Assembly (NCBI GenBank): GCA_021805565.1
Contig: JAJZFA010000021.1
Coordinates: 62,001-126,000, forward strand
Direction: 5' to 3'
Origin: Pseudomonadota bacterium
GTDB taxonomy: Bacteria > Pseudomonadota > Alphaproteobacteria > Acetobacterales > Acetobacteraceae
Length of the DNA stretch: 64,000 nt
The position numbers and the translations under genes are program-made. Below, one piece after another: positions 30,094 to 61,455 of the stretch. The notes under the pieces were generated by a model. It ran no database searches. It was not told where the DNA came from and was given only the letters and a program-made list of their open reading frames with translations. Numbering within the stretch: position 1 is the stretch's first letter; every line of letters begins with the position of its first letter.

Positions 30094-31569
30094 ATGCGCA
30101 CGCCTCGCGTCACGATCGTCGGTGCCGGCGCGGGGGGGTTGGCAGCCGCCACCGACCTCGCGCGATCCGGCCTCGCCGTCACGGTGCTGGAACGCGCCGC
30201 CGCGCCGGGCGGGAAAATCCGCCAGACGGCCGGAATCGATGCCGGCCCGACCGTGCTGACCATGAAACCGGTGTTCGACGACCTGTTCGCCGGCGCGGGA
30301 TCGTCGCTTGCGGACCATCTGACGCTGCACCCGGCCACCCTGCTCGCCCGGCATGCCTGGAGCGACTCCGAAACGCTCGACCTGTTCGCCAACACCGCAC
30401 AAACCGCCGACGCCATCGGCGCTTTCGCCGGACCGGCCGAGGCCGCCGGATACCGGAGTTTTGTCCAGCGTTCGAAACGCATGTTTCAAACGCTGGACAA
30501 ACCGTTCATGCGATCCCCGCGTCCAACCGCGTTGTCGCTCGCGGCCGGATCGGGGATTTCCGCGATGCTGGGCATCTCGCCCTTCGCCACCCTGTGGAAC
30601 GCGCTGGGCGAGCATTTCAAGGACCCCAGGCTGCGCCAGTTGTTCGGCCGCTATGCCACCTATAGCGGTTCGTCGCCGTTCCTGGCGCCCGCGACGCTGA
30701 TGCTGATCGCGCATGTCGAACAACAAGGGGTTTGGTTGCCCGAAGGCGGCATGATCCGGCTGGCGGCGGCGCTGGCCGCACTGGCCAGCCGCAAGGGCGC
30801 GGTCCTGCGCATGAACGCGCATGTGTCGGAAATCCTGGTTTCCGGCGGCCGAGCGCGCGGCGTGGTACTGGGGACCGGCGAACGGATCGAATCCGATGCG
30901 GTGATATGCAATGCCGATGCCGCCGCGCTGGCGGCCGGCGCGTTCGGACACGGCGCCATTCCCGCCGTGCCGGCCCCAAAGCGTGCCGGCCGGTCGCAAT
31001 CGGGGGTCACCTGGGCGCTGACCGCGACCGCAAGCGGGTTTCCGCTGACCCGCCACAATGTCTTTTTCTCACGCGACTACCGGACCGAATTCGCCGATGT
31101 CTTCCGCGACGGACACCTTCCGGACGAACCGACCGTCTATGTTTGCGCGCAAGATCGCGGCGAACCGGGCGCCGAACCGGACGGCACACCGGAACGGCTA
31201 TTGGTTTTGGTCAACGCACCGCCGACCGGCGACCGGCACGCGTTCAACCCACAGGAGATCGAGGCATGCGCGACCCGGACATTCGCCCTGCTGCACCGCG
31301 CCGGCCTGTCGATCGATCGCCGGCCGGAAGCGACGGCGGTCACGACCCCGGCGGATTTCGAGGCGCTTTACCCGGCGACGGGGGGCGCCCTGTACGGGCA
31401 GGCGGTGCATGGCCCGATGGCGGCGTTCCGCCGGCCCGGATCGCGGAGCAAAATCCCCGGCCTGTATCTGGCGGGGGGCAGCGTGCATCCGGGACCGGGC
31501 GTGCCGATGGCGGTGCTGTCGGGCCGACTCGCGGCATCGGCGCTGCTGGCGGACCTGACTTCGCGATAA
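30094..31569 (+). CDS. crtD: Methoxyneurosporene/hydroxyneurosporene dehydrogenase
   Basis: A 491-residue FAD-dependent phytoene-desaturase-family enzyme. The dinucleotide fold is VTIVGAGAGGLAAA, then ERAAAPGGKIR and GIDAGPTVLTMKPVF, which separates CrtD from CrtI. The C-terminal FAD motif is GLYLAGGSVHPGPGVPMA. It introduces the C3,4 double bond. The start is the ATG at 30094 with GAAGG seven bases before; an ATG at 30079 would lie almost at the predicted transcription start. The TAA stop overlaps an ATA where crtC appears to begin. Confidence 0.93.
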   Translation: MRTPRVTIVGAGAGGLAAATDLARSGLAVTVLERAAAPGGKIRQTAGIDAGPTVLTMKPVFDDLFAGAGSSLADHLTLHPATLLARHAWSDSETLDLFANTAQTADAIGAFAGPAEAAGYRSFVQRSKRMFQTLDKPFMRSPRPTALSLAAGSGISAMLGISPFATLWNALGEHFKDPRLRQLFGRYATYSGSSPFLAPATLMLIAHVEQQGVWLPEGGMIRLAAALAALASRKGAVLRMNAHVSEILVSGGRARGVVLGTGERIESDAVICNADAAALAAGAFGHGAIPAVPAPKRAGRSQSGVTWALTATASGFPLTRHNVFFSRDYRTEFADVFRDGHLPDEPTVYVCAQDRGEPGAEPDGTPERLLVLVNAPPTGDRHAFNPQEIEACATRTFALLHRAGLSIDRRPEATAVTTPADFEALYPATGGALYGQAVHGPMAAFRRPGSRSKIPGLYLAGGSVHPGPGVPMAVLSGRLAASALLADLTSR

Positions 31570-58250: not shown

Positions 58251-58528
58251 TCTGGTCGCCGGCCTGTCCCGCGCCATACCGTCCGGACCTGCCGGCGCGG
58301 ACGACGATTTGTTTCCCGCGGCCGGACGCGGGCTCGGCCGTCCGGCGGTTCGTCGGATTTTACTGCCTTGCTGGCTGGTGCGACGTGCCGGTCAAAGCCG
58401 CGCCCGGGAATAGCTGGCATAGAAGTCCCGGCGGGCGGGCGCCGTAGCATCGTGACTTGTCCCGTATCATCGCTCGGGTCGCCACTTCTCCGCTTGCATT
58501 TCGGCCCGCCGCACCCAAACATTCCTCC

Positions 58529-61114
58529 ATGCTGGCCTCCGACTCCGGTTTTGCTGCGCGCGTCAAGGCCGTCCTGGGCCCGACCAACACGGGCAAGACG
58601 CATCTGGCGATCGAACGCTTGCTCGCCCATGCGTCCGGTATCATCGGCTTCCCGCTACGCCTGCTGGCGCGGGAGAACTACGACCGCATGGTCGCCATCA
58701 AAGGCGCCCGCCACGTCGCCCTGATCACCGGCGAGGAAAAAATCGTCCCGCCCGATGCGCGCTGGTTTTCCTGTACGGTGGAGGCGATGCCGCTGGACCG
58801 CCGTGCCGAATTCGTCGCGGTGGATGAAATCCAGTTGTGCTCCGACCCCGGCCGCGGCCACGTCTTTACAGACCGGCTGCTGCACGCCCGCGGCATGGTG
58901 GAAACGATGTTCCTGGGCGCGGAAACCATCGCGCCGCTGATTCGCCGCCTGGTGCCCTCGGCCCAGATCGAAACCCGGCCGCGCCTGTCGCAACTGGCTT
59001 ATGCCGGCCCCGCCAAGCTGGTGCGCCTGCCGCCGCGTACTGCCGTGGTCGCGTTCAGCGCCGCCGAACTGTATGCGCTGGCCGAGTCGATCCGTCGCCG
59101 TAAGGGCGGGTGCGCCGTCGTCATGGGCCGCCTGTCGCCCCGCACCCGCAACGCCCAGGTGGCGCTGTATCAGGCGCGCGAGGTCGATTTCCTGGTCGCC
59201 ACCGATGCGATCGGCATGGGCCTGAACATGAACGTCGATCACGTGGCGTTCGCCGGCCTGGGAAAATTCGACGGCCACCGCCCGCGCCGCCTGACGCCGC
59301 CGGAACTCGCCCAGATCGCCGGCCGGGCCGGGCGCGGCATGAAGGATGGCACCTTCGGCACCACGGCCGAATGCCCGCCCATCCCCGACGATGTCGTCGC
59401 GGCGGTGGAAGCGCATCGTTTCGAGTCGCTGGACCTGCTGTTCTGGCGCAACAGCGATCTCGATTTTTCCTCGCTGGACGGATTGATCGGCAGTCTCAAT
59501 GCGCCGCCGCCCCGGCCGGGCCTGACGCGCGGGAACGAAGCGGCGGATCTGGAAACCCTCACCGCCCTGGCGCGCGACCCCGACATCCGCAAGCTGGCGT
59601 CCGGCCGCCGTCCGATGCGCCTGCTGTGGGACGCCTGCCAAATTCCCGACTTCCGCAAACTGGCCGACGATACCCACGCCAGGCTGTGTGCGCGCGTGTT
59701 CGGCCATGTGGCGGCCGGAACCTATCTGCCCACCGATTGGCTGGCCGCCCAGATCGCGGCACTGGACCGAGCGGATGGCGACATCGACACGCTGATGCAA
59801 CGCCTGTCCGGGGTGCGCGTGTGGTCTTACATCGCCGCCCGCGCCGATTGGGTGAAAGACACCGCCCACTGGCAGGCGAAAGCGCGGCAGGTGGAGGACA
59901 AATTGTCCGACGCGCTGCACGAAAGCCTGACCAGCCGGTTCGTCGATCGCCGGTCCGCCCACCTGATGCGACGGCTGGAGGAGGCCGATGGCAAGGATCT
60001 GCTGTCAGCCGTCACCCGGCGCGGGGAAGTTGTCGTGGAGGGCCACGATGTCGGCCACATCGAAGGGTTCGGCTTTGTCCCCGATCCGCTGGCAGCCGGC
60101 GACGAGAAAAAGCTTGTGCTACGCGCTGCCCGGCGGGCTTTGCGCGACGAAATGCCCCGCCGCGTCGGCACGCTGGAAATGGCCGCCGACAGCGCATTCG
60201 CCCTGACCGCGGATCACCGTATCGCCTGGAACGGCATGCCGGTGGCGAAACTGGTGCGCCGCGCGCAGCCGATACGGCCCGGCGTGCAGGTTCTGGACAG
60301 CGAATTCCTCGACGGGGCGGAGCGGGAACGGATCAGGATCCGTCTGCAATCCTGGCTGGATTGCCAGATCCGGACAGACCTTGCGCCATTGTTCGCCGCC
60401 GATACGCTGGCCCGCACCGCCCCTGCCCTGCGCGGGACGCTGCACCGGTTGATGGAATCCCTCGGCCTGATTCCTGGCCTGGATGAGGAAACGCTCGCGC
60501 CGGACATGCGCACCCGCTTGCGGGCACTCGGCGTGCGGCCAGGCCGGTTCGCACTGTTCATACCGGCACTGATGAAAGCCCGTCCGGCCGCCATGCGCGC
60601 CCGTCTGTGGGCTTTTCATCAGGGTGTTCCGGTGCCAGCACTGCCGGATCCGACGCTGGTGTCCATCCCCGCCGGATGGGGGGACTGGCCGGCCGGGTTC
60701 GCCCAGATAGCGGGTTGGATCGATGCGGGTCCGATCCTGCTGCGCCTGGATATCGCTGAGAAAATCGCCGGCGACCTCGCCTGGCGCTGCCGCGGCGGTG
60801 CGGCCGCGCTGCCGTCCGGACTGGCGTCGCGCTTCGCGGTCACGCCGGCGATGCTGCCCGCCGTGCTGCGGCGGATCGGCTTTCGTGTGCTGCCCGCCGC
60901 CGCCCTTGAACCGGCAATGTGCGGTCCGCCCGCCCCCGCGATGCTGATGCCGCTTCGACGCCGCCGCCCGGCACCGTCCGGCACCGAACCGATTCGCCCG
61001 GACGGTGGGCCATTCGCCGTCCTGGCCAGCCTGCGACAGGCCAACCCGCGACAGGCCAACCCGCGACAGGCCAACCCGCGACAGGCCAGCGTGCGACAGG
61101 GAGGCACACGATAA
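58529..61114 (+). CDS. SUV3-like DExH RNA helicase
   Basis: An 861-residue helicase of the alphaproteobacterial/mitochondrial SUV3 group: Walker A GPTNTGKTH, Walker B variant VDEIQLC, motif III-like FLGAETI, motif V VATDAIGMGLN and motif VI QIAGRAGRG. A long C-terminal half includes Cys-poor winged and helical parts. Mitochondrial SUV3 works with PNPase in RNA decay. The last residues are a repeated RQANP pentapeptide encoded by a 15-bp repeat. The ATG at 58529 is preferred over a TTG at 58457; neither has a good ribosome site. Its TAA overlaps the ATA where the S4 gene seems to begin. Confidence 0.9.
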   Translation: MLASDSGFAARVKAVLGPTNTGKTHLAIERLLAHASGIIGFPLRLLARENYDRMVAIKGARHVALITGEEKIVPPDARWFSCTVEAMPLDRRAEFVAVDEIQLCSDPGRGHVFTDRLLHARGMVETMFLGAETIAPLIRRLVPSAQIETRPRLSQLAYAGPAKLVRLPPRTAVVAFSAAELYALAESIRRRKGGCAVVMGRLSPRTRNAQVALYQAREVDFLVATDAIGMGLNMNVDHVAFAGLGKFDGHRPRRLTPPELAQIAGRAGRGMKDGTFGTTAECPPIPDDVVAAVEAHRFESLDLLFWRNSDLDFSSLDGLIGSLNAPPPRPGLTRGNEAADLETLTALARDPDIRKLASGRRPMRLLWDACQIPDFRKLADDTHARLCARVFGHVAAGTYLPTDWLAAQIAALDRADGDIDTLMQRLSGVRVWSYIAARADWVKDTAHWQAKARQVEDKLSDALHESLTSRFVDRRSAHLMRRLEEADGKDLLSAVTRRGEVVVEGHDVGHIEGFGFVPDPLAAGDEKKLVLRAARRALRDEMPRRVGTLEMAADSAFALTADHRIAWNGMPVAKLVRRAQPIRPGVQVLDSEFLDGAERERIRIRLQSWLDCQIRTDLAPLFAADTLARTAPALRGTLHRLMESLGLIPGLDEETLAPDMRTRLRALGVRPGRFALFIPALMKARPAAMRARLWAFHQGVPVPALPDPTLVSIPAGWGDWPAGFAQIAGWIDAGPILLRLDIAEKIAGDLAWRCRGGAAALPSGLASRFAVTPAMLPAVLRRIGFRVLPAAALEPAMCGPPAPAMLMPLRRRRPAPSGTEPIRPDGGPFAVLASLRQANPRQANPRQANPRQASVRQGGTR
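61033..61092 (+). repeat. Four 15-bp tandem repeats at the helicase 3' end
   Basis: GCGACAGGCCAACCC is repeated three times exactly (61033, 61048, 61063) and a fourth, diverged copy follows at 61078; a partial fifth begins at 61093. The in-frame period adds R-Q-A-N-P pentapeptides to the helicase tail, so copy-number change would not shift the frame. Confidence 0.9.
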
Positions 61115-61455
61115 AGAATATCGAGGACAAAGACTGGCAGCGGTTGGACAGATGGCTGTGGTGCGCCCGCGTCCTGCGTGCCCGTGGCGATTGTGCCAAC
61201 CTCGTGACGCAAGGGTCGATCCGGATCAACCGCCAGCCCACCGATAAACCGCATGCCCGGTTGCGGGTCGGGGACGTGCTGACCATCCCGCTGGCCGGAT
61301 CCGTCCGGGTACTCCACATCCTCCGCCTTGCCACCAGACGCGGTCCCGCCCCCGAGGCTCGGTTGCTTTACACCGAGGCTGAAGCCGGCGATGGAAGCCA
61401 TGCATCGGCAACATCTTGCGCCGGTACGAATTCATCGGCATATCGCGCGCTATGA
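61111..61455 (+). CDS. S4-domain RNA-binding protein (Hsp15-like), no canonical start codon
   Basis: A 114-residue protein with an S4 domain: RLDRWLWCARVLRARGDCANLV, GSIRINRQPTDKPHARLRVGDVLTI, as in heat-shock protein 15, which binds stalled 50S subunits. No ATG, GTG or TTG lies upstream in frame near the domain start. An ATA at 61111-61113 overlaps the helicase TAA (ATAA) and has GGGAGG six bases before it; it would give M-KNIEDKDWQRLDRWLW. A TTG at 61144 (directly at LDRWLW) is a poorer alternative without a ribosome site. The C-terminal 30 residues are Ser/Ala-rich. Confidence 0.82.
   Translation: MKNIEDKDWQRLDRWLWCARVLRARGDCANLVTQGSIRINRQPTDKPHARLRVGDVLTIPLAGSVRVLHILRLATRRGPAPEARLLYTEAEAGDGSHASATSCAGTNSSAYRAL

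What the first reader, a model, noticed from the sequence alone, without database searches (positions are those of the whole stretch)
61090..61150. Second ATAA junction: helicase to S4 gene, with a strong ribosome site before ATA
The S4/Hsp15-like gene also lacks a canonical start, and an ATA at 61111 overlaps the helicase TAA as ATAA. Here GGGAGG lies six bases before the ATA, exactly where a ribosome site should be, and the product would start M-KNIEDKDWQ, a natural N-terminus. Two cases of the same rare arrangement in one 64-kb window suggest that this lineage tolerates AUA initiation in coupled pairs.
Basis: partly seen in the sequence, partly recalled or inferred. Interest (0 to 1): 0.75.

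Follow-up and report, generated by a model that had tools for sequence, protein, structure and literature searches.

The report
Conserved AUA-type start codon, ribosome-rescue gene
In a group of bacteria around Rhodopila, a small gene related to the ribosome-rescue protein Hsp15 begins with a rare start codon (AUA, AUC or AUU) next to a strong ribosome-binding site, and about two dozen species share this, which points to deliberate throttling of the gene rather than to a mutation or an error.

Summary
In detail: ATA at 61111-61113 overlaps the helicase TAA as ATAA, GGGAGG lies six bases upstream, and the S4/Hsp15-like gene has no canonical start nearby. It is neither an error nor an isolated mutation. 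Of 85 distinct parsed loci (own included), 60 have ATG/GTG/TTG within 63 nt before the conserved QRLD block; the other 25 have ATA (18), ATC (5) or ATT (2), 24 at one fixed codon where 21 of the 60 have ATG/GTG/TTG. In the genus, 21 of 31 genomes holding the gene do this. A strong Shine-Dalgarno motif precedes 23 of 25 such starts but 1 of 50 canonical ones tested. In 13 of 25, in-frame stops exclude any upstream start. So the AUA start is very probably real. Most likely this is an infC-like weak start, presumably discriminated by IF3; infC reads ATA in all 17 genus loci inspected. IF3 control is inferred, not shown.

The parts
61111..61455 (+). S4-domain, Hsp15-like gene (hslR-like), 114 codons read from ATA
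   Evidence: PF01479 23.7 bits over cut-off 22.8; PRK10348 Hsp15 model 35.5 bits, below its cut-off of 148; profile of 15 homologues matches solved Hsp15 chains, best E 1.7e-13
61111..61113 (+). ATA start codon (ATA/ATC/ATT in 25 distinct loci, this one included)
61099..61104 (+). Shine-Dalgarno motif GGGAGG, 6-nt spacer to the ATA
   Evidence: GGAGG/AGGAG in 23 of 25 ATH loci against 1 of 50 canonical loci
58457..61114 (+). Suv3-like DEXQ-box helicase gene, stop TAA 61112-61114 overlapping the ATA (start uncertain; the listed ORF begins at TTG 58457)
   Evidence: PF22527 E 2.3e-27 and PF00271 E 1.2e-9
61024..61100 (+). 15-bp tandem repeat (5.1 copies) that forms the helicase's RQANP-repeat tail and runs up to the Shine-Dalgarno motif
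   Evidence: translation

Best explanation
The S4/Hsp15-like gene is translated from a genuine non-canonical start codon of the AUA/AUC/AUU ('AUH') type, positioned by a strong Shine-Dalgarno motif 5-7 nt upstream. The 30S subunit is held on the mRNA by the Shine-Dalgarno pairing; the imperfect match of the codon to the initiator anticodon leaves the complex open to rejection by initiation factor IF3, so the protein is made at a low rate that should fall as active IF3 rises and rise when IF3 is scarce, as is known for infC. The helicase stop overlap is a later addition in one sub-clade and may add ribosomes by termination-reinitiation, but is not what makes the AUA work. Shown by sequence: the codon, the motif, their conservation, the absence of alternatives, ATA at infC in the same genus. 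Inferred: initiation with fMet at this codon, low output, IF3 control, and any benefit of tying a 50S-rescue factor to IF3. The stated confidence is for a true, weak AUH start; I put about 0.9 on the codon being the start and 0.5-0.6 on meaningful IF3 control.
For:: of 85 distinct parsed loci, 60 have a canonical codon within 63 nt before QRLD and none of these has ATH at the fixed codon (among the 50, checked; by the printed codon); the 25 others all have ATH, 24 at that codon and one displaced by 15 nt. 21 of the 60 have ATG/GTG/TTG at exactly that codon (14, 7), which marks it as the start position; 13 of 25 have an in-frame stop within 60 nt upstream and nothing canonical between. (24 loci): protein-type conservation begins after the codon (mean diversity at codon positions 1/2/3: 0.19/0.16/0.42 downstream, 0.67/0.53/0.48 upstream); at the codon A and T never vary while the third base does. 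Strong Shine-Dalgarno in 23/25 against 1/50, median duplex energy -11.0 against -4.8 kcal/mol. Isolates are among them: Rhodopila globiformis DSM 161 (ATC, L051) and Acidisphaera sp. S103 (ATA, L046). In L069 the ATA and its AGGAGG persist with a divergent Iso_dh gene (PF00180, E 3.4e-87) upstream instead of the helicase; infC reads AGGAG-spacer-ATA in the 17 genus loci inspected. Precedents, passages read: PMC5472188 (sigR, GTC start with AGGAGGTG, repressed by IF3) and PMC13009471 (S. aureus: AUA at infC; ccpN AUA, cvfC1 AUU, citZ AUA; about 10% of AUG output, up to 30% for ccpN in rich medium).
Against: No expression, N-terminal peptide or ribosome-profiling data. 10 of 31 genus genomes with the gene use ATG/GTG/TTG, so AUH is not required. 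L088 (ATT) has no strong motif, and L104 has only GGGGGG. L017, L025 and L088 have canonical codons further upstream in frame (TTG at -75; GTG at -78 and TTG at -66; ATG at -84, counted from QRLD) that are not excluded there. The link between AUH and Shine-Dalgarno may rest on one evolutionary event: a single AUH clade is not rejected (p-AU 0.218), and only 2 independent pairs lie on well supported branches. An internal Ile codon would show the same ATA/ATC/ATT wobble, so that pattern alone proves nothing. Each of the 17 infC loci also has an ATG 15 nt after its ATA, so the infC start here rests on the motif and on precedent. IF3 control is untested.
Confidence: 0.72

Rival explanations
1. One reading: the lineage tolerates AUA starts in general, through termination-reinitiation at ATAA junctions.
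For: ATAA or ATAG overlap in 10 of 25 AUH loci; a second ATAA junction with two long frames at 31566.
Against: Overlap maps as one change inside the AUH group; 11 AUH loci have the helicase stop 12-33 nt upstream; in L069 a divergent gene lies upstream and the ATA persists; the 31566 junction shows ATA in 4, CTG in 4, GTA in 1 and other codons in 2 of 11 loci, without GGAGG/AGGAG; no surplus of SD+ATH genes in 19% of the genome.
Confidence: 0.08
2. The S4 protein is made as a helicase-S4 fusion by ribosomal frameshifting stimulated by the GGGAGG motif.
For: In the window the S4 frame is open 201 nt upstream of the ATA, and an internal Shine-Dalgarno-like motif can stimulate frameshifting (prfB and dnaX; recalled).
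Against: In 13 of 25 AUH loci an in-frame stop lies within 60 nt upstream of the ATH, and in 11 the helicase has ended 12-33 nt before it; protein-type conservation in the S4 frame starts only after the ATH.
Confidence: 0.03
3. Translation starts at another codon: the upstream GTG (60919) or the downstream TTG (61144).
For: Both are in frame.
Against: A GTG start would read through 64 codons inside the helicase gene, and 13 of 25 AUH loci have stops close upstream of the ATH. The TTG would drop EDxDWQ, whose first two codon positions are conserved while third positions vary; in other AUH loci that codon is often CTG or CTC.
Confidence: 0.06
4. Conserved weak start that only sets a low expression level, with no regulation by IF3 concentration.
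For: The sequence evidence for the start is equally compatible with simple throttling; pcnB of E. coli is described as translationally limited by AUU (title of Binns and Masters 2002, seen only in the reference list of PMC13009471).
Against: IF3 is described as acting against non-canonical starts (passages of PMC5472188), and infC in this genus has the same arrangement, so some IF3 sensitivity is expected.
Confidence: 0.35
5. Sequencing error, pseudogene, or AUA read as Met in this organism.
For: None found beyond the odd codon.
Against: Shared by 25 distinct loci from separate assemblies, isolates among them; ATC and ATT also occur; AUA is used 455 times in the sampled coding frames as the rarest Ile codon; a tilS (lysidine synthase) gene is present.
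Confidence: 0.01

Closest known systems
infC (IF3) with AUU/AUA/AUC start, autoregulated
   Same: AUH start with Shine-Dalgarno, conserved across species; infC in this genus reads AGGAG-spacer-ATA in the 17 loci inspected
   Different: Different product; the IF3 feedback is described for infC of E. coli (passage of PMC5472188) but only inferred here
Streptomyces sigR, GTC start repressed by IF3 (PMC5472188, passages read)
   Same: Gene other than infC with a rare start and a very strong ribosome site (AGGAGGTG)
   Different: GTC rather than ATA/ATC/ATT; IF3 control tested there, not here; stress sigma factor rather than ribosome-rescue protein
S. aureus ccpN (AUA) and cvfC1 (AUU) starts (PMC13009471, passages read)
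   Same: Conserved AUA/AUU starts with extended Shine-Dalgarno; reporters gave about 10% of AUG output, up to 30% for ccpN in rich medium
   Different: Firmicute, unrelated genes
E. coli pcnB (AUU start)
   Same: Rare AUH start limiting translation (title seen in a reference list)
   Different: Poly(A) polymerase gene (recalled); not compared by sequence here
E. coli Hsp15 (HslR) / B. subtilis RqcP (YabO)
   Same: S4 domain; profile matches solved Hsp15 chains (best E 1.7e-13) and YabO (1.3e-5)
   Different: Below the NCBIfam Hsp15 cut-off (35.5 against 148 bits)

Membership tests
Genes with IF3-discriminated non-canonical start codons (infC, pcnB, sigR type) | Start codon other than ATG/GTG/TTG at the true start | tested here: met
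   By comparison only: the 25 loci without a canonical codon within 63 nt of QRLD all have ATH, 24 at one codon
Genes with IF3-discriminated non-canonical start codons (infC, pcnB, sigR type) | Conservation of the rare start among orthologues | tested here: met
   21 of 31 genus genomes with the gene; 10 of 31 have ATG/GTG/TTG instead
Genes with IF3-discriminated non-canonical start codons (infC, pcnB, sigR type) | Strong Shine-Dalgarno supporting the weak codon | tested here: met
   23 of 25 against 1 of 50; few independent events
Genes with IF3-discriminated non-canonical start codons (infC, pcnB, sigR type) | Translation repressed by IF3; AUG replacement raises output | not testable with these tools
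   Needs reporters or IF3 alleles
Hsp15 (HslR) family | S4 RNA-binding domain | tested here: met
   PF01479 23.7 bits, cut-off 22.8
Hsp15 (HslR) family | Score above the NCBIfam equivalog cut-off NF007673 | tested here: not met
   35.5 bits against 148; so called Hsp15-like only
Hsp15 (HslR) family | Binding to 50S subunits carrying peptidyl-tRNA | not testable with these tools
   Described for E. coli Hsp15 (passages of PMC8012679 and PMC11317155)
Stop-start overlapping, translationally coupled gene pair | Start codon overlaps or closely follows the upstream stop | tested here: met
   ATAA in the window; overlap in 10 of 25 AUH loci
Stop-start overlapping, translationally coupled gene pair | Downstream translation depends on upstream translation | not testable with these tools
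   Needs a reporter with a premature upstream stop; AUH persists in L069 behind a divergent gene

The most novel reading that the evidence does not exclude
In Rhodopila and close kin a ribosome-rescue (Hsp15-like) gene has been placed, by an infC-like AUH start plus strong Shine-Dalgarno, under the control of IF3, so that the supply of a factor for dissociated 50S-peptidyl-tRNA complexes follows the ratio of IF3 to free 30S subunits: a small IF3 'start-codon regulon' (infC and hslR at least) maintained in most of a genus.
Probability: 0.35. Interest if true: 0.75.

Novelty: new member of a known kind. Interest (0 to 1): 0.6.

Why it matters
Few genes outside infC are known to use AUA/AUC/AUU starts, and gene finders that allow only ATG/GTG/TTG will miss or truncate them. 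A case shared by some two dozen species, with close relatives that have GTG or TTG at the very same codon and no strong Shine-Dalgarno motif, is a natural experiment on how a weak codon and a strong ribosome site trade off, and it makes directly testable whether IF3 level is a signal for genes other than its own.

Tried and rejected
Downstream TTG and upstream GTG as starts: rejected on conservation and in-frame stops. Frameshift fusion: rejected on stops in 13 of 25 loci and on helicase stops upstream in 11. AUA reassignment: tilS present, AUA used as a rare internal codon. Changed IF3 or initiator tRNA: the 17 genus IF3 sequences are strongly conserved; some substitutions follow the clades (for example EIRIPQ and GVRVLERIRAEM in most AUH genomes), not tested for meaning. 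The initiator-tRNA arm pattern was found in 22 of 36 genomes but not in the window's own, whose 40 listed tRNA places also lack a tRNA-Ile(GAT) and tRNA-Ala(TGC), so the assembly seems incomplete there and its initiator tRNA was not checked. Conserved hairpin around the start: RNAalifold finds none in 24 aligned loci. Genome scan: 864 kb of 4.49 Mb only; a first version used a coding threshold that dropped the S4 gene itself and was replaced. One search also listed weak ATH candidates, not followed. Independent origins of AUH: not shown (at least 4 changes on the best tree, a 'quick' tree with 14 of 75 rows under half filled; 2 forced by well supported branches; one clade not rejected, p-AU 0.218). 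Pfam gave no family for the frame just upstream in L088. Hecht et al. 2017 was not held. That I found no paper on an AUH start of an Hsp15/hslR gene rests on searches of the open-access library; two listed only the top 15 of 426 and 10 of 211 papers, none of the listed ones holding the word Hsp15 or hslR; it is not a full literature search.
Full report
What is there. At the end of a Suv3-like helicase gene (PF22527, PF00271) the window reads GGGAGG (61099-61104), a six-base spacer, ATA (61111-61113) and, overlapping it, the helicase stop TAA (61112-61114); from the ATA a 114-codon frame encodes an S4-domain protein. By sequence profile its nearest solved relatives are Hsp15 chains (E 1.7e-13 with a profile of 15 homologues); it scores 35.5 bits with the NCBIfam Hsp15 model, far below its cut-off of 148, so I call it Hsp15-like.

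Relatives. The named records place the lineage with Rhodopila and Acidisphaera in the Acetobacteraceae. Of 110 locus records had the motif used for anchoring and gave 75 distinct loci, the window's own included; the 10 others were parsed separately and are not duplicates of these. Of these 85 loci, 60 have ATG, GTG or TTG within 63 nt before the QRLD block; the 25 others all have ATA (18), ATC (5) or ATT (2), 24 at the same codon, nine codons before QRLD, and one displaced by a 15-nt insertion. Of the 60, 21 have ATG, GTG or TTG exactly at that codon (14, 7). Within the genus, 21 of the 31 genomes with the gene have ATH and 10 are canonical.

Why the ATH is the start. (a) In 13 of the 25 ATH loci an in-frame stop lies within 60 nt upstream of the ATH with no canonical codon between. 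(b) In 24 loci aligned without gaps, the third codon position is the variable one in the 8 codons after the ATH (0.19/0.16/0.42), as in the 20 codons that follow (0.14/0.06/0.39); upstream it is not (0.67/0.53/0.48). EDxDWQ, before the only nearby downstream TTG, is conserved in this way, so it is translated. (c) At the ATH codon A and T are invariant in these 24 loci. (d) A GGAGG or AGGAG stands 5-7 nt before the ATH in 23 of 25 loci against 1 of 50 canonical starts (the 10 loci were not scored); median energy of pairing to the 16S end is -11.0 against -4.8 kcal/mol, the best canonical candidate being taken where there were several. The exceptions are L088, without a strong motif, and L104, with GGGGGG. 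(e) The set includes Rhodopila globiformis DSM 161 (ATC) and Acidisphaera sp. S103 (ATA), so an assembly error is excluded. Three ATH loci (L017, L025, L088) have canonical codons 66-84 nt before QRLD that cannot be ruled out for them.

What it is not. The stop overlap is not the key. It occurs in 10 of 25 ATH loci; in 11 the helicase stop lies 12-33 nt upstream; in 4 (L019, L025, L069, L088) no helicase end was recognised just upstream, L025 having only 151 nt of flank. In L069 the upstream stretch holds an isocitrate/isopropylmalate dehydrogenase-type gene on the opposite strand (PF00180, E 3.4e-87), so nothing there can be coupled by overlap with the helicase, yet AGGAGG and ATA persist; the frame upstream in L088 matches no Pfam family. 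On a 'quick' tree of helicase and S4 proteins without the start region, the overlap needs one change inside the ATH group, the third base of the ATH five, and ATH against canonical four. A single ATH clade is not rejected (p-AU 0.218), and the association of ATH with the Shine-Dalgarno motif has only two independent comparisons on well supported branches, so it may reflect few events. The window's other ATAA junction with two long frames, at 31566 between a PF01593 amine-oxidase-type gene (crtD-like, name recalled) and a crtC-like gene (name recalled; no Pfam hit), has no GGAGG/AGGAG motif and is not conserved: ATA in 4, CTG in 4, GTA in 1 and other codons in 2 of 11 loci, one of the last two placed by extrapolation. 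Nor is there a wave of such starts: in 864 kb (19% of the genome) 21 places combine a strong motif with ATH and an open frame without a close canonical start; 2 pass the coding filter, this gene and one doubtful ATC, while the 15 other codon families give 0-7 by the same rule, so by this scan alone the gene would not stand out; 85 canonical starts pass the coding filter. AUA is not reassigned: it occurs 455 times in sampled coding frames, and tilS is present. No conserved hairpin covers the start.

How it most likely works. In the 17 genus infC loci inspected (18 of 22 genus genomes searched had a match, one of them without a fetched locus), infC reads ACAGGAG-spacer-ATA and the IF3 protein is strongly conserved (each also has an ATG 15 nt later, so the infC start is taken from precedent). 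[quoted passage not shown] The S4 gene has the same architecture. I therefore read it as an infC-like start: the Shine-Dalgarno pairing holds the 30S subunit, the AUH codon leaves the complex open to rejection by IF3, and output is low and IF3-sensitive. Close precedents are Streptomyces sigR (GTC, AGGAGGTG, IF3 repression shown; PMC5472188) and S. aureus ccpN and cvfC1 (AUA/AUU with extended Shine-Dalgarno, about 10% of AUG output, up to 30% for ccpN in rich medium; PMC13009471). Why an Hsp15-like protein should be so controlled is conjecture: E. coli Hsp15 acts on stalled 50S subunits still carrying peptidyl-tRNA (passages of PMC8012679 and PMC11317155), a state linked to subunit splitting. 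I put 0.9 on the AUA being the start and about 0.5-0.6 on meaningful IF3 control.

Novelty. Non-canonical AUH starts with strong Shine-Dalgarno motifs are a known kind; this is a new member, in a gene family and lineage for which my searches of the open-access library listed no earlier report (lists capped as told under Tried and rejected).

Noticed in passing
31566 (crtD-like to crtC-like junction): The crtC-like frame has no ATG/GTG/TTG within 60 nt upstream or 27 nt downstream of its beginning in the window and in 9 of 10 relatives; the codon over the upstream stop is ATA, CTG or GTA in 9 of 11 loci and there is no GGAGG/AGGAG motif. How this gene is started is unexplained.
   Followed up: partly
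61024-61100: A 15-bp tandem repeat (5.1 copies) extends the helicase by an RQANP-repeat tail just before the Shine-Dalgarno motif; helicase ends seen in relatives are short, such as LAALKR or LAALKRGGAR.
   Followed up: partly
L030, L118, L029 against L020, L022, L023, L104: Relatives carry GTG or TTG at exactly the codon that is ATC elsewhere, and lack GGAGG/AGGAG, as if codon strength and Shine-Dalgarno strength trade off.
   Followed up: partly
L012, L016 (unnamed genus members): Between the helicase stop (31-32 nt upstream of the ATA) and the ATA these loci carry a further TGA in the S4 frame, 18 nt before the ATA, which leaves the ATA as the only sensible start.
   Followed up: yes
L069: The S4 gene stands behind a divergent isopropylmalate-dehydrogenase-type gene instead of the helicase, and still has AGGAGG-spacer-ATA.
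   Followed up: yes
G000 contig C62, minus strand, within the sampled stretch 1-220000: A 441-codon frame may begin at ATC after GGGGAG with no canonical codon upstream; weak candidate for another such start.
   Followed up: no
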